Source: Streptosporangiaceae bacterium
GTDB lineage: Bacteria > Actinomycetota > Actinomycetes > Streptosporangiales > Streptosporangiaceae
DNA length: 7,386 nucleotides
Direction of reading: 5' to 3'
NCBI GenBank assembly: GCA_030039095.1
Contig: JASHQP010000483.1
Location: 1 to 7,386, forward strand
How positions within the stretch are numbered: the first letter of the stretch is position 1; every line of letters starts with the position of its first letter. The translations under genes were made by a program, and so were the position numbers. Shown one piece after another: positions 2 to 7,386 of this stretch. A model generated the notes under the pieces. That model saw only the letters and a list, made by a program, of their open reading frames with translations, made no database searches and was not told the origin of the DNA.

Positions 2-500
2 GCGGGTTCGGGTTCAAGTCCCTGGCGGCGCACCCGTGAGGTCTTCATCCTGGCCAACATCATCTGCGGCCGTACCTGTACCCCGGACCGGATCGCCACG
101 ATCAAGGCGCTGCTCGGCATCAACCGCCCGTTCTTCGCCCAGTTCTGGGACTTCGTCCAGGGTATCGTCGCCGACCGGACCTACGGGACCGGCACCAGCG
201 CCATCCCGTGCCCGGCGCTCTGCCTTGGCTACTCGTTCCAGCAGAACGAAGGCGTCTGGCAGCTCATCGCCGGCCGACTCCCCGTCACGATCACCCTCGC
301 CGTCGGCGCAGCTGTGCTCTGGCTGCTGGTCAGCATCGTCGCCGGCCTGGTCAGCGGGCTGAAGGAGGGTACCTGGTGGGATCACGGCACGGCGCTGATC
401 ACGCTCGGCGCCTCCGCCGTCCCCAACTTCGTGCTGGCGCTCGCGCTGCAGTACCTGTTCGTCGTGGTCTGGCATGTGCTGCCATTTCCCCAGGTGACCT
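2..500 (+). pseudogene. ABC transporter permease (DppB/OppB type), 5'-partial and truncated
   Basis: The plus-strand frame entered at base 2 reads a fragment of a binding-protein-dependent permease of the peptide/nickel (DppB) family, which forms the membrane channel of an uptake system. It shows the extracytoplasmic stretch after TM1 (CGRTCTPDRIATIKALLGI, then RPFFAQFWDF), the run RLPVTITLAVG leading into a membrane segment at about 290-361, and a second membrane segment at about 392-472 ending VVVWHVLPFPQ. The start and TM1 would lie left of the window. The downstream half of the family (TM4-6 and the cytoplasmic EAA loop that contacts the ATPase) is absent: somewhere between about 485 and 518 the sequence passes into an unrelated neprosin-like fragment. 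A channel could not form, so this is most likely a pseudogene. No other transporter subunit is visible. The family call is firm; the exact right boundary is not. Confidence 0.7.
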
Positions 501-517
501 GCTTCCTGCCGAACCCG

Positions 518-843
518 TGGACGTGGTTCGAGGCGTACCTGACGGCCTGCCCATCGGCTACTTCCCCGGTTCGCTGTGGGACGGCGGCTATCCGTCTGCG
601 GGGTGGCTCGAGGCGTTCGGTGAAGTGGAAGGGCACAACGGCGCCTGCCTGCACGCAGATGGGCGACGGCCTTTATGGTCAGAGCCCCCTGTCGTCATGG
701 ATGGCGGCCTACCAGCTCCGCGGGGCGGACACCGCACCAGATCTGTCCGGCCCGTACGAGACCAGCCCCAGCTACTACAACTACGGCTTCGCGACGACGG
801 ACTCCTTCCACCTCGGTGGCCCGGGTGACTGCACCTCGTCCTG
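518..843 (+). pseudogene. Neprosin-like (DUF239) C-terminal fragment with two frame changes
   Basis: This stretch reads as the C-terminal end of a neprosin/DUF239 domain, a family of secreted proteins that includes the plant glutamic peptidase neprosin. Family-like signatures occur in order: WFEAY (527-538 with preceding WT), then DGLPIGYFPGSLW from 541, WLEAFGEV to 627, CTQMGDGLYG from 650, and a terminal FHLGGPGDC before the TGA at 841-843. To read all of them the frame must skip two bases at 539-540 and one at about 628, returning to the original frame. Codon-position composition supports this: between 541 and 627 the shifted frame has the GC pattern of real coding sequence, and the original frame does not. 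The N-terminal part, signal peptide included, is missing and replaced by the permease fragment. The family call rests on remembered motifs, not on a search. Confidence 0.6.
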
Positions 844-898
844 AAACGCTCGAGCCGGGCAACCGCCGGTCCGGCATCCAGGGAAGTACCCTTGACCG

Positions 899-1618
899 GT
901 GTTCTCGCCCGAAGGCCCGTCAGTGGCCGAACTGGCGAAGCAGGCGCTGTCCTCGGTGGAAGGCGGCTACGACCTGCTTGCCCCGAAGTTCGACCACACG
1001 CCGTTCCGCACCGCCGAAGGCATTCTCGACGCGACCGCCGCAGCGTTGCGCCCGCTCGGCCCGTTCGGCCGGGCACTGGACGTGTGCTGCGGCACCGGCG
1101 CGGGCGCGGGCGTCCTGGAATCTGTGTGCCACGGACCGGTCATCGGCGTCGACTTCAGCAACGGGATGCTCGCGCAGGCGCGCCGCGCTCGCCCGGACGC
1201 CACGTGGGTACGGGCGGATGCCCGGGCCTTGCCCTTCGCCGCGGCGTTCGACCTGGCGGTCAGTTTCGGGGCACTGGGGCACTTCCTGCCCGCGGAGCGC
1301 CCGGCACTGTTCGCCGGCGTGTACCGCGCGCTGCGGCCGGGCGGGGTTTTCGCCCTCCCGATCGGCGCGCCGCCGCCCGTCGGCTCACGCTGGTATCTGG
1401 CGCTGCTCGGGTACGACCTGGCCATGCGGGCCCGCAACGCCGTGTGGCGTCCCCCGTTCGTCATGTACTACCGCACCTGCCCGCTGCACGCGGTTCGCGA
1501 CGACCTGACGGCAGCCGGATTCTCCGTGACGACCGTCCCCCTGGCGGAACTGGGCCGGCGCGAGGATGGCAGCCCGCGGTTCCGGCTCGTCCTCGCGCGC
1601 AGGCGCAGCAAGACCTGA
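899..1618 (+). CDS. Class I SAM-dependent methyltransferase
   Basis: This is a complete 239-residue cytoplasmic methyltransferase with a Rossmann-like SAM fold of the Methyltransf_11/25 type. Motif I, which binds the methionine part of SAM, is ALDVCCGTGAGAG at residues 59-71. The acidic residue ending strand 2 that binds the ribose is D85 in VIGVDFS, motif II is ADARALPF at 106-113, and the post-motif ALRPGGVFAL is at 144-153. The C-terminal third (RWYLALLGYDLAMRARNAVW and following) is where the substrate cap would lie and shows no family-specific signature, so the acceptor is unknown. The GTG at 899 has only a distant AGGGA upstream. An in-frame GTG at 923 sits 7 bp after GAAGG and may be the true start, giving 231 residues. 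It lies 55 bp after the permease/neprosin remnant and converges on the minus-strand gene, with 15 bp between the two stops. Confidence 0.88.
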   Translation: MFSPEGPSVAELAKQALSSVEGGYDLLAPKFDHTPFRTAEGILDATAAALRPLGPFGRALDVCCGTGAGAGVLESVCHGPVIGVDFSNGMLAQARRARPDATWVRADARALPFAAAFDLAVSFGALGHFLPAERPALFAGVYRALRPGGVFALPIGAPPPVGSRWYLALLGYDLAMRARNAVWRPPFVMYYRTCPLHAVRDDLTAAGFSVTTVPLAELGRREDGSPRFRLVLARRRSKT

Positions 1619-1633
1619 CGCCGCCGGCGACCC

Positions 1634-2092
1634 CTACCGGGACGGGAGGTCCAGGCCGGCCGTCTTCGCACTGGCCTCGGTCAGCGCCGCCGCCATCATG
1701 TCCGCGGCGCGCCCGGCCGCGGCGAGCGCCTCGGAAACCTCGAGCAGCAGGCCGTCAGCGCTGCCGCCCGTGCCGCTCACTATCCGGCCGTCCTCGCACT
1801 GGGCGACCAGGAACCGGGCGAGCTGCTCGCACAGCTGCGGCAACTCGTGCCCCATCAGCGCCAGCCGGCCCACGACCTCGCAGGCCTCGCCCGGACCGGT
1901 CAGCTCCCCGGCATCCCCCGTCAGGTGGTTGAGCGCCCGGGCAGCCTCGACCGCCGACGCGGCGAGCTCCCGGACGGTCATCGTGGCGGCCAGCTCGTTC
2001 ACGTAACCGGGTGCGGCATCCACCTGGGACCGGGCGAGCGCGGCGGCCTCGGTGTCATCCCCGGAGCCGTAAGGCTGAACTTTCCTGGGCAT
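1634..2092 (-). CDS. Hypothetical alanine-rich helical protein, 152 aa
   Basis: I do not recognise this protein. The reading is real: third positions are almost all G or C on the minus strand, it starts with ATG, and a GGAGA sits 3 bp upstream (2096-2100 on the plus strand). After a polar N-terminus (MPRKVQPYGSGDD) it is predicted by eye to be mostly amphipathic helix, with segments MTVRELAASAVEAARALNHL, LPQLCEQLARFLVAQCEDG and LLLEVSEALAAAGRAADMM. There is no signal peptide, membrane segment, DNA-binding helix-turn-helix or catalytic motif that I can see. Two cysteines in the middle and a glycine/serine loop (VSGTGGSADG) separate the helices. A helical-bundle accessory or scaffold role would fit but is only a guess. 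It is divergent from the decarboxylase operon and shares a 414 bp intergenic region with it. Confidence 0.75.
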   Translation of the reverse strand: MPRKVQPYGSGDDTEAAALARSQVDAAPGYVNELAATMTVRELAASAVEAARALNHLTGDAGELTGPGEACEVVGRLALMGHELPQLCEQLARFLVAQCEDGRIVSGTGGSADGLLLEVSEALAAAGRAADMMAAALTEASAKTAGLDLPSR

Positions 2093-2506: not shown

Positions 2507-4096
2507 ATGGGATCGCCTACCCCTCCTGGCGCCCGTAGCCCCGGGGGTTACGCCACAGTTCCCTCGCCGCTGGCAATGGACGACATGACCTTCCGCGACC
2601 TGGGCCATCGGCTCGTGGACACGCTGGCCGTCTACCTGGACAAGCTTCCGCAAGAGCCGGTTTACCAGCCCTTGCCCATGGAAGTGCGGCGAGAGCTAGA
2701 GAAAATGGAAATCCCCGCCGATGGATCGGCGGCCGAAGATGTCATCGAGGACTTTCTCCGGCTCGTGCTGCCGTACGGGCGAGGCCAGAATCATCCGTGT
2801 TTCGCCGCGTTCGTTGATCCCGCAGCGTCCCGGCTGAGCATGCTGGCGGCATTTGCCTCTGCGGCGACCAATACGAGTGGTTCCGGCGGTAATTACGCGG
2901 CCATCTACGTTGAGCAGGCTGCCATTCGCTGGCTGATGGAGCTCATCGGTTTCCCGACCGACGGAAGCGACGGCGTCCTCCTCGGCGGCGGATCCGACGC
3001 GAACCGGCACTGCCTGGAGGTCGCGCGGTACTGGGGCGCCAAGGTCAACGGCTGGGACGTCAGGGAAGAGGGCCTGCACGGCCACCCGAGGCTGACCATG
3101 TACATGTCGGCCGAGGGCCATTCCTGCCTGGACAAGGCCGCGTTCACGCTCGGGCTCGGCGCTCCCCGCAAGGTGGGGACCGACGCGGGCTTCCGCATGG
3201 ACGTCGCGGACCTGCGGGAGGCGGTCGCTGCCGACCGGCGGGCCGGCCACCGGCCGTTCCTGGTCGCGGCGAACGCCGGGAGCGTGACGACCGGAGCGAT
3301 CGACCCGCTCGCCGAGCTCGCGGATTTCTGCCGCGACGAGGAACTATGGCTGCACGTGGATGGCGCGTTCGGCGGCTTCGGGGTCCTCGATCCGCGCCTC
3401 GCCCCGCTGTACCAGGGCCTGGAGCGCGCCGACTCGGTCGCCCTCGACCCGCACAAGTGGCTGGCCGTGGCCATCGGCTGCAGCTGCGCGATGGTGCGCC
3501 AGGGCTCGCTGCTGCAGGACACGTACAAGCTCATCCCGTCCTATCTCAGGCTGCCGCCGGGGCGGGGGTTCGCCGGTGACGTCTGGTACTCGCATCGCAG
3601 CGCCGAGCAGACCAGGGATTCGGGGCGCGCGCTGAAGACGCTCTGGAACATCCAGCAGGCCGGGAAGGCCGGGCTGGTGGATCACGTCCGGCGGCACGTC
3701 GACCTGGCGCGCCACCTGGAACGCCTGGTCGAGGCCGACCCGGAGCTGGAGCTGATGGCGGCCGGCCCGCTGGCCGCGGTGTGCTTCCGCTACGCGCCGG
3801 AAGGCATGCGCGGCGACGAGACGGCCCTGGACCTGCTGAACCAGGCGGTCATGGAAGACGTCCAGGTCGGCGGGCAGGCGTTCCTGGCCGGGGTCAACAT
3901 CCGCGGCCGCTTCGCGCTGCGCTCGTGTGCGCTGCACTACGCGCTCGACGAGGGGCACGTGCAGGCGATCGTGGACGCCGTCCGGGATGCCGGCCACCAC
4001 CGCGCCCGCTCGGACGCGCGCTGGGCCGAGGGCGAGACCACGGCCCCGATGCCGCGCTGCGACTCGCTGGAGGAGGACGCGACGTGCGCACCGTAA
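2507..4096 (+). CDS. PLP-dependent group II amino-acid decarboxylase
   Basis: This 529-residue fold-type I PLP enzyme belongs to the group II decarboxylases (aromatic-amino-acid, glutamate, histidine and diaminobutyrate decarboxylases). These remove the alpha-carboxylate of an amino acid to give an amine. Signatures in order are GVLLGGGSDAN at 156-166 (phosphate-binding loop), H205 in the SAEGHSCLDKA run (the histidine stacking on the cofactor), NAGSVTTGAIDPL at 256-268, HVDGAFGGF at 283-291 with D285 for the pyridine nitrogen, and DPHKW at 314-318 with K317 as the Schiff-base lysine. PSYLRL at 344-349 supplies a tyrosine where the mobile catalytic loop of decarboxylases has one. The first 24 residues and the last 30 or so, an acidic tail with RWAEGETT, extend beyond the usual core. 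The substrate cannot be read from the sequence. It opens the operon and overlaps murT by 13 bp. The 5' third has clearly more A/T in third positions than the rest. Confidence 0.9.
   Translation: MGSPTPPGARSPGGYATVPSPLAMDDMTFRDLGHRLVDTLAVYLDKLPQEPVYQPLPMEVRRELEKMEIPADGSAAEDVIEDFLRLVLPYGRGQNHPCFAAFVDPAASRLSMLAAFASAATNTSGSGGNYAAIYVEQAAIRWLMELIGFPTDGSDGVLLGGGSDANRHCLEVARYWGAKVNGWDVREEGLHGHPRLTMYMSAEGHSCLDKAAFTLGLGAPRKVGTDAGFRMDVADLREAVAADRRAGHRPFLVAANAGSVTTGAIDPLAELADFCRDEELWLHVDGAFGGFGVLDPRLAPLYQGLERADSVALDPHKWLAVAIGCSCAMVRQGSLLQDTYKLIPSYLRLPPGRGFAGDVWYSHRSAEQTRDSGRALKTLWNIQQAGKAGLVDHVRRHVDLARHLERLVEADPELELMAAGPLAAVCFRYAPEGMRGDETALDLLNQAVMEDVQVGGQAFLAGVNIRGRFALRSCALHYALDEGHVQAIVDAVRDAGHHRARSDARWAEGETTAPMPRCDSLEEDATCAP
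4069..4076 (+). promoter_or_regulatory. Ribosome binding site of murT (GGAGGAGG)
   Basis: A near-perfect Shine-Dalgarno sequence lies inside the decarboxylase C-terminus, 7 bases before the GTG at 4084. It fixes the murT start there, even though the same frame is open far upstream. Confidence 0.75.
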
Positions 4097-5550
4097 CCAG
4101 CCGTCCTCCGGCCAGGCACGCGGCGGCCAAGGTATCCGTCCCGCCCTCGGCGCAGGCGCGCTTCACGCTCGCGCTGGCGGGGGGCAAGGCAGCGGGGACC
4201 GCGTCGCGGGTGCTGCGGACCGGCGGGGGCACCAGCTTCCCCGGCATGGTCGCCCGCCGGATCGATCCGCGCATCCTGCAGAAGACCGCGGCCGTGAACA
4301 ACGCCAGCACCGTGGTCGTCACCGGGAGCAACGGCAAGACGACGACCTGCCGGATGCTCGCCGCGCTGGCCCGGGCCGGTGGCCTGTCGGTCACCCAGAA
4401 CCGGTCGGGTTCCAACCTGCTGCAGGGAGTGATCTCGGCCGCCGTGCGGGGGACCGACCTCCGCGGCCGGATGGGCGCGCAGATGTTCCTGCTGGAAGTC
4501 GACGAGGCAACGGTCCGCCTGGTGGCACCGGAGGTGCTGCCGGACGCGCTGCTGATCACGAACATCTTCCGCGACCAGCTGGATCGCTTCGGCGAGCTGT
4601 ACACGATGGCGAAGGGGCTCGAAGGTGTGATCGAGGCGCTGCCCGAGTCCGCCACCGTGGCGCTCAACGCCGACGATCCCCTGGTCGCCAGCCTCGCGCC
4701 GGATGCGCGCGCCCGCCGGCTGTACTACGGCATCGCCGACGACGGCTCCGGCACCCGGGAGCCGGAGCACTCCGCGGACACGATCCGCTGCGTGCGCTGC
4801 CAGCACATGCTGAGCTACCGCGCCGTGCACTTGTCTCACCTGGGCGACTACGAGTGCCCGGAGTGCGGCAACGCCCGCCCGGGCCTGGACGTCGCGGTGA
4901 CCGCGATCCGGCCCTCGAAGGAGACAGGCACGGAGATTACCGTCGAGACTCCGGCGGGGGTCTTTGCGCTCCAGGTGCCGTTGTCCGGGATGCACAACGT
5001 CTACAACGCTGCGGCCGCGCTGGCCGGCGCGATGGCGCTGTCGCCGTCACGGCCGCTGGACCCTGCCGAGGCGCGGCACGCGATCGCCGACCTGCGCCCG
5101 GCGTTCGGCCGGCTGGAGGAGATTCAGGCGGGCGACCGGCAGATCGTGCTGTCCTTCGTCAAGAACCCGACGTCCTACAACGCCACGCTGCGCGAGGTGC
5201 TTCAGCGGCCCGGGCCGAAACACGTCCTGGCCGCGCACAGCAACACCGTGGTGGACGGCGAGGACTTCGCCTGGCTCTGGGACACCGAGCTCGAGCGGCT
5301 CGTGCCGCAGCTGGCGAGCCTCACCGTCAGCGGGACCAGGGCCGAGGAGGTCGCGCTGCGGTTCAAGTACGCCGGCGCGAGCCCCGACATCACCACCATC
5401 CTGCCCGGCCGCTCGGCCGCCCTCTCGAGGGCCCTGAACGCGACGCCGCCGGGCGGGTCCCTGTACATCTTCGCTGGCTACACCCCCATGCGCGAGCTGC
5501 GCAGCGTCATGCAGCGACGCGGCTGGGTGCGGCCGACCTGGGAGGAATAA
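4084..5550 (+). CDS. murT: MurT-like Mur ligase (lipid II amidation subunit or paralogue)
   Basis: This 488-residue protein is a member of the MurT family (Mur ligase middle domain plus DUF1727). With GatD, MurT uses ATP to activate the alpha-carboxyl of D-isoglutamate in lipid II and adds ammonia to give D-isoglutamine. The ATP loop TGSNGKTTT is at 80-88, FLLEVDEA at 135-142 and ITNIFRDQLDRFGE at 158-171. A four-cysteine zinc ribbon typical of MurT is inserted in the middle domain (C236, C239, C258, C261). The DUF1727 part shows KNPTSYN at 360-366, DGEDFAWLWD at 391-400, SGTRAEEVALRFKYAG at 416-431 and a terminal helix with MRELRSVMQRRG. In known complexes MurT lends an aspartate to the GatD active site; D391 or D394 is the likely equivalent. 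It is longer than usual (about 410-450) because of a basic, proline-containing N-terminus of some 20 residues. It may be the housekeeping enzyme or a dedicated paralogue; the neighbours favour the latter. Confidence 0.88.
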   Translation: MRTVTSRPPARHAAAKVSVPPSAQARFTLALAGGKAAGTASRVLRTGGGTSFPGMVARRIDPRILQKTAAVNNASTVVVTGSNGKTTTCRMLAALARAGGLSVTQNRSGSNLLQGVISAAVRGTDLRGRMGAQMFLLEVDEATVRLVAPEVLPDALLITNIFRDQLDRFGELYTMAKGLEGVIEALPESATVALNADDPLVASLAPDARARRLYYGIADDGSGTREPEHSADTIRCVRCQHMLSYRAVHLSHLGDYECPECGNARPGLDVAVTAIRPSKETGTEITVETPAGVFALQVPLSGMHNVYNAAAALAGAMALSPSRPLDPAEARHAIADLRPAFGRLEEIQAGDRQIVLSFVKNPTSYNATLREVLQRPGPKHVLAAHSNTVVDGEDFAWLWDTELERLVPQLASLTVSGTRAEEVALRFKYAGASPDITTILPGRSAALSRALNATPPGGSLYIFAGYTPMRELRSVMQRRGWVRPTWEE

Positions 5551-5555
5551 CCGAC

Positions 5556-6431
5556 ATGACAACCGCTGGCAAAACGGTCCGCATCTGCCACCTCTACCCG
5601 AGGCTGCTCAGCGTGGCCGGCGACCGGGGGAACCTGTTCGCCCTCATGCAGCGCTGCGCCTGGCGGGGAATCCGCTTCGACGTGACCGAGGCCGACGTGG
5701 GCGACGTCCCCGACTTCACCGAGTCGGACCTGATCCTGCTGCACGGCGGGCAGGACCGCGAGATGACCGCGGCCGCGCGCGACCTGGCGCAGAAGGCCGG
5801 GCCGCTGACCGACGCGATCGAGGGCGACGCCGTCGTGCTCGCCGTGTGCGCCGGATATCAGCTGCTCGGACAGTACTATGCCCCGTCGCAGGGCCCGCGG
5901 ATCGAGGGCATCGGCGCGCTGGACGTGGTCACCGAGGCCGGGCCGACGCGCTTCATCGGGCACGTGGCGGTGGACTGCGACTTCGGCTCCGGCGACCGCG
6001 GACAGCTCACCGGGTTCGAGAACCACAGCGGCCGCACCCTCCTGGGCGCCGGCGCGCAGCCGCTCGGGCGCGTGATCGCCGGCGGCGGCAACAACGGCGA
6101 CGACGGCACCGAAGGCGCCCGGTACCGGGAGGTCTACGCGACCTACCTGCACGGGCCGGTGCTGCCGAAGAACCCGTGGCTGGCCGATCACCTCATCTCC
6201 CGCGCGCTGGAGCACCGCTACAGCGACGTTGGCCCGCTCACACCGCTCACGGACCAGGCGGAGGCGCAGGCGCACGCCGCGTCGCTCCGCCTCGCCCGGC
6301 GGCCGGCCCGCAGATGGCGGGCGGCCTCGGTGGCCGGCAAGCGGATGCGGCGGCGGCCACTGCGGTCCCCGGCGCGCGCCCGCGCGAAGACCAGGCCCGC
6401 GACCAAGGAGACACGGTGGACTTCTCACTGA
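5556..6431 (+). CDS. gatD: GatD-like glutamine amidotransferase with arginine-rich tail
   Basis: This 291-residue class I (triad) glutaminase of the CobB/CobQ-like GatD family releases ammonia from glutamine for its MurT partner. The nucleophile is C98 in VLAVCAGYQLLG (94-105) and the catalytic histidine is H199 in ATYLHGPVLPKNP (195-207). LLHGGQDRE (61-69), GFENHSGRT (153-161) and GGGNNGDDGTEG (176-187) are family hallmarks. ATG at 5556 follows GGAGGA (5541-5546) and lies 5 bp after the murT stop, as expected for subunits made together. Family members usually end near residue 245. Here about 45 further residues follow, dense in arginine and lysine (RLARRPARRWR, then GKRMRRRPLR), in a frame with normal third-position GC and thus apparently translated. 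The tail overlaps the next gene by 16 bp. It could bind the anionic membrane or a nucleic acid, or be a by-product of translational coupling. Confidence 0.88.
   Translation: MTTAGKTVRICHLYPRLLSVAGDRGNLFALMQRCAWRGIRFDVTEADVGDVPDFTESDLILLHGGQDREMTAAARDLAQKAGPLTDAIEGDAVVLAVCAGYQLLGQYYAPSQGPRIEGIGALDVVTEAGPTRFIGHVAVDCDFGSGDRGQLTGFENHSGRTLLGAGAQPLGRVIAGGGNNGDDGTEGARYREVYATYLHGPVLPKNPWLADHLISRALEHRYSDVGPLTPLTDQAEAQAHAASLRLARRPARRWRAASVAGKRMRRRPLRSPARARAKTRPATKETRWTSH
6405..6410 (+). promoter_or_regulatory. Ribosome binding site of the acyl-CoA dehydrogenase (AAGGAG)
   Basis: AAGGAG lies within the end of gatD, 5 bases before a GTG at 6416. It decides this start: the protein from here begins VDFSLNAEQREL, the normal N-terminus of the family. 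Confidence 0.75.
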
Positions 6432-7386
6432 ACGCCGAGCAGCGTGAGCTGACCGAGGCGGCCGCCGACTTCGCCCGCCGGGAGCTCAACCACGACCTCG
6501 CGAAGCGCGAGGACGCGGGCGAGTTCCCGCGGGACGCGTGGCGGGCGTGCGCCAAGTTCGGGGTCCTCGGCCTGCCGGTCCCCACCGACCTGGGCGGCAC
6601 CGACAGCGACGTGCTGACGACCGCCCTGGTCATGGAGGCCCTGGGGTACGGCTGCCAGGACAACGGCCTGCTGTTCTCACTGAACGCGCAGATGTGGAGC
6701 GTGGAGCTGCCCCTGGTTGCGTTCGGCACCGAGGCGCAGCAGCACAGGTACCTGCCGCCGATGGTGTCCGGCGACATCCTCGGCGGGCACGCGATGACCG
6801 AGCCGGAGAACGGCTCGGACGCGCTGCACATGCGCACCCGCGCCGAGCGGCGTGGTGACCACTACGTCCTGAACGGCGCCAAGCAGTACATCACCAACGC
6901 GCCGGTCGCCGACGTGTTCCTGGTGTACGCCTCGGTCACCGACCGCCCTGGCCTGGCCGGCCTGTCCGCGTTCCTCGTGGACGCCGCGACGCCCGGGCTG
7001 ATGGTGAGCAGTGGCTTCGAGAAGATGGGCCTGCGCACCTCGCCGATCGGCGAGATCGCGCTGGACGACTGCACGGTACCCGTGGAGAGCCGGCTGGGGC
7101 CGGAAGGCGCCGGCATGGCCATCTTCAACTCGTCCATGGAGTGGGAGCGCAGCTGCATCTTCGCCAGCGTCGTCGGGGCGATGCGGCGGCAACTCGACGC
7201 GTGCGTCGCGTACGCGCGCTCGCGCGAGCAGTTCGGCCAGCCGATCGGGAAGTTCCAGGGCGTGTCGAACAAGCTGGCCGACATGTACGTCCGGCTGGAG
7301 GCGGCGCGGCTGATGATCTACCGGGTCGCCTGGCTGAAGCAGCAGGGCAGGTCGGCGCCGGCCGAGGCGGCCGCCGCGAAGCTGTT
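6416..7386 (+). CDS. Acyl-CoA (or acyl-carrier-protein) dehydrogenase, 3'-partial
   Basis: An open frame begins at GTG 6416 and runs off the window; 323 residues are visible of about 380 expected. It is an FAD flavoenzyme that introduces a double bond alpha-beta to a thioester. The N-terminal helical domain starts DFSLNAEQRELTEAAADFAR. The FAD/substrate signature is AMTEPENGSD at 126-135, the middle beta domain has YVLNGAKQYITNA at 150-162, and the C-terminal helical domain has YARSREQFGQPIGKFQGV at 266-283. The catalytic glutamate and the last helices are outside the window. It overlaps gatD by 16 bp and has its own AAGGAG, so it is part of the same operon. Homologues in natural-product clusters act on carrier-protein-bound acyl or aminoacyl groups; here the substrate is unknown. 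Pairing with an amino-acid decarboxylase and an amidating ligase hints at a biosynthetic rather than a fatty-acid-degradation role. Confidence 0.9.
   Translation, partial: MDFSLNAEQRELTEAAADFARRELNHDLAKREDAGEFPRDAWRACAKFGVLGLPVPTDLGGTDSDVLTTALVMEALGYGCQDNGLLFSLNAQMWSVELPLVAFGTEAQQHRYLPPMVSGDILGGHAMTEPENGSDALHMRTRAERRGDHYVLNGAKQYITNAPVADVFLVYASVTDRPGLAGLSAFLVDAATPGLMVSSGFEKMGLRTSPIGEIALDDCTVPVESRLGPEGAGMAIFNSSMEWERSCIFASVVGAMRRQLDACVAYARSREQFGQPIGKFQGVSNKLADMYVRLEAARLMIYRVAWLKQQGRSAPAEAAAAKL

What the first reader, a model, noticed from the sequence alone, without database searches (positions are those of the whole stretch)
2507..7386. MurT/GatD pair locked in an operon with an amino-acid decarboxylase and an acyl-CoA dehydrogenase
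Four genes overlap or nearly touch (13 bp overlap, 5 bp gap, 16 bp overlap), each with a strong internal ribosome site. MurT/GatD is known for amidating lipid II, and neither partner here is a cell-wall enzyme. Three readings are possible. First, a recruited MurT/GatD that amidates a small-molecule carboxylate, with the decarboxylase and dehydrogenase shaping the same molecule. Second, an extra copy protecting a producer of a lipid II-binding compound. Third, the housekeeping pair with acquired neighbours. The first would be a little-described use of this ligase-amidotransferase machine.
Basis: partly seen in the sequence, partly recalled or inferred. Interest (0 to 1): 0.7.

Follow-up and report, generated by a model that had tools for sequence, protein, structure and literature searches.

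The report
Cell-wall amidating enzyme inside pyrrole-making operon
In some uncultured soil actinobacteria, a second copy of an enzyme pair normally known for amidating the cell wall is built into a conserved gene cluster that looks set up to turn proline into a pyrrole group and attach it to something, so the pair probably helps make or tolerate an unknown compound.

Summary
The four genes and their 13-bp overlap, 5-bp gap and 16-bp overlap are real. In 7 relative loci the GatD/dehydrogenase overlap is 16 bp in 7 of 7 and the decarboxylase/MurT overlap 13 bp in 5 of 7. Seven of 8 relative genomes also carry the ordinary actinobacterial MurT-GatD, about 30% identical, in a separate clade. The window MurT falls in a subfamily shared, in what I searched, with Chloroflexota. 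The "acyl-CoA dehydrogenase" resembles prolyl-carrier-protein dehydrogenases. In relatives the operon continues with a proline-type adenylation enzyme, a carrier protein and an LpxL-like acyltransferase. So this is a specialised operon with an embedded second MurT-GatD. Most likely the pair amidates a carboxylate of that pathway (0.45); wall amidation for self-protection is the main rival (0.35). Against small-molecule use: its motifs match Chloroflexota copies, some near peptidoglycan genes, and it scores better against lipid II-synthase profiles than the ordinary copies do. Substrate and product unknown. New variant of a known kind.

The parts
2507..4096 (+). PLP-dependent group II amino-acid decarboxylase (PF00282); ATG 2507 or 2576
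   Evidence: First in-frame start lies 66-72 nt upstream of the 2576-equivalent in 4 of 7 relatives, further upstream in 3, which mildly favours 2507. DPHKW and the Tyr of WYSHRS (recalled as PLP-lysine and catalytic-loop positions) conserved in 9 of 9
4084..5550 (+). MurT-like ATP-dependent ligase subunit of a subfamily shared with Chloroflexota
   Evidence: P-loop GSNGKT, Glu138 (=E108), Asp394 (=D349 of S. aureus), Cys4 ribbon present
5556..6431 (+). GatD-like glutamine amidotransferase subunit, with an Arg/Ala-rich C-terminal tail of about 60 residues
   Evidence: Cys98 (=C94) and His199 in LHGP (=H189); tail
6416..7386 (+). prolyl-carrier-protein dehydrogenase-like flavoenzyme, cut by the window end
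   Evidence: searches (RedW 382 bits, PigA 368 bits on the partial protein, both below cut-off; best solved relative 4irn, prolyl-ACP dehydrogenase, 348 bits), SMEWER at residue 240

Best explanation
The window holds the first half of a specialised biosynthetic operon of an uncultured Streptosporangiaceae-type actinobacterium. In relatives the operon continues so that L-proline is (1) activated by a stand-alone adenylation enzyme, (2) loaded on a carrier protein, (3) oxidised by the dehydrogenase to a pyrrole- or pyrroline-2-carboxyl thioester, and (4) transferred by an LpxL-like acyltransferase to an acceptor. The PLP decarboxylase makes an amine, perhaps the acceptor. The MurT-GatD pair, a second copy of a subfamily otherwise found in Chloroflexota, uses ATP and glutamine-derived ammonia to turn a carboxylate of this pathway's intermediate or product into a primary amide. 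Shown: gene content, order, spacing, catalytic residues, a separate ordinary pair in 7 of 8 relative genomes, separate clade. Inferred from families: steps 1-4 and ATP/glutamine amidation. Not shown: the acceptor, the amine and the carboxylate.
For: Order decarboxylase-MurT-GatD-dehydrogenase-A enzyme-carrier-acyltransferase on one contig in 6 of 7 loci (the acyltransferase of L003 is cut by its contig end); the seventh (L001) runs off its contig inside the A gene, and another contig of the same genome (L157) holds the rest. Spacing conserved. Among 200 genomes of the family, which include the eight I started from, the window-type MurT and the decarboxylase at 72% or more occur in the same 8 and in none of the other 192; the B12-radical-SAM gene in 7 of those 8 (broken in G007, not found in G003) and no other. 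A enzyme: best single-domain solved relative is the L-proline--carrier-protein ligase 6o6e, 346 bits, then another such ligase (7thn, 261), against 236 for 1amu. Ordinary MurT-GatD separate in 7 of 8 genomes. In G007 decarboxylase, MurT and GatD are open frames while the radical-SAM gene is internally deleted and the best dehydrogenase is 38%: the three seem to hold together as a unit.
Against: Between the 8 window-type sequences and the two nearest Chloroflexota groups only 10 columns are fixed differently; two are insertions, two (117, 119) lie just after the GSN loop, none is in the ATP, GSN, KNP or DGED motifs. So the recruited enzyme may still use the ancestral, possibly cell-wall, substrate. 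In Ktedonobacteria that copy sits near a D-Ala-D-Ala carboxypeptidase and a phosphodiester glycosidase. The window MurT and GatD score higher against the lipid II-synthase profiles (219, 178 bits) than the ordinary copies of G004 and G005 (156-157, 115-117 bits), and in the midpoint-rooted tree the S. aureus and S. pneumoniae MurT fall on the window's side of the deepest split. The pyrrole genes also occur in G140 and G068, where no window-type MurT and no close decarboxylase was found. No product is known. In the window itself the genes after the dehydrogenase lie outside the sequence.
Confidence: 0.45

Rival explanations
1. Self-protection or wall remodelling: the extra pair still amidates lipid II (or a peptidoglycan precursor) and guards the producer against its own product, or fits the wall for it.
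For: Same subfamily near peptidoglycan genes in Ktedonobacteria; motifs unchanged against Chloroflexota copies; higher score against lipid II-synthase profiles than the ordinary copies; another MurT-GatD paralogue of genome G001 lies near a penicillin-binding protein (L130).
Against: Relatives already have an ordinary pair (7 of 8). The pair lies between two biosynthetic genes, overlapping the dehydrogenase gene in 7 of 7 loci. No transporter or other resistance gene was recognised among the operon genes scanned. In G007 it is still found with the decarboxylase although the pyrrole genes were not found.
Confidence: 0.35
2. Cell-envelope decoration: all enzymes work on a lipid-linked precursor at the membrane. 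The LpxL-like enzyme puts the pyrrole group on a glycolipid or lipid-linked glycan and MurT-GatD amidates a carboxylate of it.
For: LpxL/PIM-acyltransferase family (PF03279) with HX4D motif in 4 of 4; in G140 the pyrrole genes lie beside four glycosyltransferases and a possible polysaccharide flippase (flippase match below cut-off); known MurT-GatD substrate is lipid II (PMC6085368, PMC6113224, passages).
Against: The flanking sugar genes are not conserved (L150 has other neighbours); a crude hydropathy scan of 4 acyltransferases showed no clear transmembrane helix; the decarboxylase and P450 are not explained.
Confidence: 0.15
3. Housekeeping pair with neighbours acquired by chance.
For: None beyond the MurT and GatD family assignment; G003 showed no ordinary copy, and the window's own genome is unseen.
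Against: Second ordinary pair in 7 of 8 genomes, separate clade (100/100), conserved operon.
Confidence: 0.03

Closest known systems
MurT/GatD lipid II isoglutaminyl synthase (S. aureus 6gs2/7q8e, S. pneumoniae 6fqb)
   Same: Two subunits in the same gene order, ATP site, Cys4 ribbon, GatD Cys/His and MurT Asp of the catalytic triad
   Different: About 30% identical to the ordinary actinobacterial copy; GAN loop reads GSN; DNAAD region reads NTVVD; 219 and 178 bits against curated cut-offs of 800 and 400, though ordinary actinobacterial copies score lower still
Prolyl-carrier-protein dehydrogenases (4irn, RedW, PigA) with their L-proline ligases (6o6e) and carrier proteins
   Same: Sequence, SMEWER stretch, adjacent A enzyme and carrier protein in relatives
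   Different: Below the curated RedW and PigA cut-offs even at full length in L005 (426 of 650, 431 of 500); the partners include an LpxL-like acyltransferase, MurT-GatD and a decarboxylase
LpxL / PIM acyltransferases (PF03279)
   Same: Pfam family and HX4D motif
   Different: 72 bits against a PIM-acyltransferase cut-off of 209; sits behind a carrier protein next to a proline-type adenylation enzyme

Membership tests
Lipid II isoglutaminyl synthase MurT/GatD | GatD Cys94/His189 and MurT Asp349, Glu108, P-loop (S. aureus numbering) | tested here: met
   Cys98, His199; Asp394, Glu138, GSNGKT
Lipid II isoglutaminyl synthase MurT/GatD | NCBIfam equivalog cut-offs | tested here: inconclusive
   NF045635 218.8 of 800, NF045636 178.3 of 400. 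Control: the ordinary copies of G004 and G005 fall further below (156.8, 155.7; 117.2, 114.5), and a Thermogemmatispora pair of each type also fails (219, 179; 230, 203), so the cut-offs do not discriminate here.
Lipid II isoglutaminyl synthase MurT/GatD | DNAAD motif implicated in stem-peptide contact and GAN substrate loop | tested here: not met
   NTVVD and GSN. The DNAAD letters also differ in the ordinary actinobacterial and pneumococcal MurT shown, so this is weak.
Lipid II isoglutaminyl synthase MurT/GatD | Amidates lipid II | not testable with these tools
   Needs enzyme assay
Housekeeping actinobacterial MurT clade | Groups with the copies found across the family | tested here: not met
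   Window in a 35-row clade apart from 28 housekeeping rows, split 100/100
Prolyl-carrier-protein dehydrogenase | Closest characterised relatives, SMEWER stretch, adjacent proline ligase and carrier protein | tested here: met
   (ligase and carrier seen in relatives, not in the window)
Prolyl-carrier-protein dehydrogenase | Curated RedW or PigA score | tested here: not met
   426.1 of 650 and 430.7 of 500 for full-length L005
Prolyl-carrier-protein dehydrogenase | Oxidises prolyl-S-carrier protein | not testable with these tools
   Needs enzyme assay

The most novel reading that the evidence does not exclude
A MurT-GatD machine recruited from a Chloroflexota-type subfamily amidates a small molecule (for example the carboxylate of a pyrrole-2-carboxamide conjugate), a use for this ligase-amidotransferase outside peptidoglycan.
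Probability: 0.42. Interest if true: 0.78.

Novelty: new variant of a known kind. Interest (0 to 1): 0.6.

Why it matters
MurT-GatD is treated as a cell-wall enzyme and how it binds its acceptor is not settled (PMC6113224, PMC6085368, passages). A natural second copy, coupled to a defined pathway and separable from the ordinary copy, would give a comparison for what the acceptor site reads, and points to an uncharacterised, probably pyrrole-containing compound in uncultured soil actinobacteria. If the pair turns out to protect the wall, it would suggest lipid II as the target of the product.

Tried and rejected
Own-genome search: not possible, no genome held; relatives were used instead. 'Housekeeping with acquired neighbours': rejected for the relatives. 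Decarboxylase specificity from family scores: inconclusive (DABA decarboxylase 144 bits of 900, aspartate decarboxylase PanP 109 of 606, best PDB chain 4obu at 196 bits, titled only 'Pyridoxal-dependent decarboxylase domain protein'). The Asp in FVDPAAS is conserved in 9 of 9 but its meaning is guesswork. Adenylation code read by pattern against recalled GrsA positions: full DLF-Y-IA-W-V in 2 of 8 (L005, L019); L149 reads DLF-Y-IA-W-A; 5 of 8 only partly read because my patterns missed, so I rest instead. Chloroflexota loci as bearers of the operon: 0 of 27 showed the decarboxylase or dehydrogenase (some loci are short). Curated family cut-offs as proof of a non-lipid-II role: dropped after the control showed that ordinary copies score lower; because of this control I lowered the best explanation from 0.5 to 0.45, raised self-protection from 0.3 to 0.35 and lowered the novel case from 0.45 to 0.42 in this final version.

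Literature: ten searches of the open-licence PMC library; I recognised no report of MurT-GatD in a biosynthetic cluster in the listings. One search matched many unrelated words beginning 'murt'. Subscription papers are mostly not held. Read: PMC6113224 (passages, section 11, part 1 of section 12) and PMC6085368 (passages); all others seen as listings only. Not used: structure prediction, fold search, RNA tools, viral, phage, plasmid and E. coli collections.

Full report
WHAT IS THERE. Four genes on +: decarboxylase 2507 (or 2576)-4096, MurT-like 4084-5550, GatD-like 5556-6431 and a flavin dehydrogenase from 6416 past the window end. Spacing is -13, +5 and -16 bp. The MurT-like protein keeps the P-loop, the metal-binding Glu (138), the Cys4 ribbon and the Asp (394) aligned with S. 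aureus Asp349; GatD keeps Cys98 and His199. The roles of those residues come from PMC6113224 (passages, section 11 and part 1 of section 12 read) and PMC6085368 (passages read).

THE DEHYDROGENASE IS A CLUE. Its best families are the L-prolyl-carrier-protein dehydrogenase RedW and prodigiosin PigA, and the best solved relative is prolyl-ACP dehydrogenase 4irn at 348 bits, sharing the SMEWER stretch. It stays under both curated cut-offs even at full length in a relative. Such enzymes make pyrrole or pyrroline carboxyl thioesters (knowledge of the family, recalled).

RELATIVES. The window's genome is not held. The protein search listed 120 of 1694 relatives, 72-93% identical to the MurT, the few informative names being Streptosporangiaceae. 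A scan of 84,980 species genomes with a MurT alignment gave 79 loci; L036-L079 match weakly (34% identity or less over long stretches; a few short matches up to 50%) and were left aside. Of the first 35, 8 are actinobacterial MAGs (68-78% identity; titles Streptosporangiaceae, Nocardiopsaceae or unspecified) and 27 are Chloroflexota. Decarboxylase, MurT, GatD and dehydrogenase stand together in 7 of the 8 actinobacterial loci and in 0 of 27 Chloroflexota loci. The eighth (L007) starts at MurT and shows no dehydrogenase after GatD. Downstream the operon continues with an amino-acid adenylation enzyme, a carrier protein of about 86 residues and an LpxL-like acyltransferase: all three in 6 of 7 (acyltransferase of L003 cut by its contig end); L001 is cut inside the adenylation gene, and L157, another contig of the same genome, holds the rest. 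Upstream, on the other strand, lie P450 and ferredoxin, and beyond them a B12-radical-SAM gene, in 4 loci (L002, L004, L006, L019); L003 and L005 are cut there but show P450/ferredoxin or ferredoxin; L001 and the window lack them next to the operon, though G001 and G005 have the radical-SAM gene on another contig. The adenylation enzyme's best single-domain solved relative is an L-proline carrier-protein ligase, 346 bits against 236 for GrsA.

SECOND COPY OR ONLY COPY. In 200 genomes of the family (which include the eight, so this is not a frequency estimate) 199 have a match to the MurT (weak Mur-ligase matches count here). The window type is in 8 of 200. Seven of those 8 also hold the ordinary actinobacterial MurT with GatD beside it (7 of 7); G003 showed none. 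The decarboxylase at 72-81% is in the same 8; 18 other genomes have a 40-45% relative at E below 1e-90. The radical-SAM gene is in 7 of the 8, broken in G007, and in no other. The dehydrogenase at 74% or more is in 7 of the 8 plus G140 and G068 (query from L005).

TREE. 78 MurT rows: 28 ordinary actinobacterial rows fall apart from the rest (100/100). The 9 window-type rows form one clade (100/100) inside a 35-row clade with Chloroflexota (100/100; 23-row subclade 100/99). S. aureus and S. pneumoniae MurT fall, on long branches, among the 50 rows on the window's side. Several long branches meet, so deep joins are uncertain; the root is only a midpoint. Within Chloroflexota (151 genomes, including five I already had) this type (50% identity or more) is in 14, of which 11 also have a 39-44% copy; for G018, G218 and G267 none was listed (counted from a list cut at its weak end). 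So it is mostly an extra copy there too. The nesting suggests transfer from Chloroflexota to the actinobacteria, but the direction is inferred. In the six Ktedonobacteria-type loci annotated the pair lies near a gene of the D-Ala-D-Ala carboxypeptidase group (6 of 6) and a phosphodiester glycosidase group (5 of 6; the sixth contig ends first); one protein of each group was scanned, both from L011.

CONTROL AGAINST MY READING. The window MurT and GatD score 219 and 178 bits against the lipid II-synthase profiles. The ordinary copies of G004 and G005 score 156-157 and 115-117. So by profile the window pair is nearer to the lipid II-synthase models than the ordinary actinobacterial pair is; failing the curated cut-off says nothing here.

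TWO NATURAL EXPERIMENTS. G068 has dehydrogenase, A enzyme, carrier and acyltransferase (cut by the contig end), and G140 the first two up to its contig end, in loci without MurT-GatD and decarboxylase; G180 has decayed pieces. G007 has decarboxylase at the end of one contig and MurT-GatD at the start of another, both contig ends carrying a GC-rich repeat; its radical-SAM gene is internally deleted, the best dehydrogenase is 38% and only a 56-residue scrap of the acyltransferase was found. MAG incompleteness could explain absences. Read together, decarboxylase-MurT-GatD and the pyrrole genes look like two units that were combined.

WHAT THE ENZYME SEES. Against the two nearest Chloroflexota groups, 10 columns are fixed differently in the 8 window-type sequences: two are insertions, the rest mostly conservative, two (117, 119) just after the GSN loop, none in the ATP, GSN, KNP or DGED motifs. 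This speaks against a change of substrate at recruitment. The subfamily differs from ordinary MurT at the GAN loop (GSN in the nearest groups; the one farther-group sequence shown keeps GAN) and in the DNAAD region, but the latter varies in ordinary MurT as well.

JUDGEMENT. A specialised operon with an embedded, non-housekeeping MurT-GatD: about 0.9. A pathway amidation as its role: 0.45. Wall amidation for self-protection: 0.35. Envelope decoration: 0.15. The second and third were 0.5 and 0.3 before the control. I recognised no description of such a cluster in the listings of ten searches; the library lacks most subscription papers.

Noticed in passing
window 2-844: OppB-like permease start: family matches end near residue 100-162 of a 280-residue frame, so the gene looks truncated or frame-shifted.
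   Followed up: no
window 899-1618 (+) and 1634-2092 (-): A class I methyltransferase and a 152-residue protein without family match; neither has a relative among the frames picked in the 8 actinobacterial loci.
   Followed up: partly
L130 2722-4221 and 1919-2809: A further MurT-GatD paralogue of G001 (about 41% to the window), two small frames away from a penicillin-binding protein with dimerisation and transpeptidase domains.
   Followed up: partly
L131, L132, L136, L140, L108, L142: More MurT-GatD paralogues or fragments in G001, G005, G008, G140, G180; L131 lies near two nitroreductase-family proteins. MurT-GatD seems to have multiplied in this lineage.
   Followed up: partly
L149: Dehydrogenase and proline-type adenylation gene beside four glycosyltransferases and a possible flippase (below cut-off).
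   Followed up: partly
L156 9460-11786: Decayed copy of the pyrrole genes: adenylation gene lacks its middle, dehydrogenase in scraps.
   Followed up: no
L002 13312-15921: AbiV-type HEPN protein and an HTH/M78 peptidase protein just beyond the operon, a possible defence locus.
   Followed up: no
L159 7920-9422, L160 8070-9572: Thermogemmatispora carry a 43-44% relative of the decarboxylase far from their MurT-GatD of this type.
   Followed up: no
L135, L137: The family's ordinary MurT and GatD score below 160 and 130 bits against NCBIfam lipid II-synthase models whose cut-offs are 400-800, so those models would not name them.
   Followed up: yes
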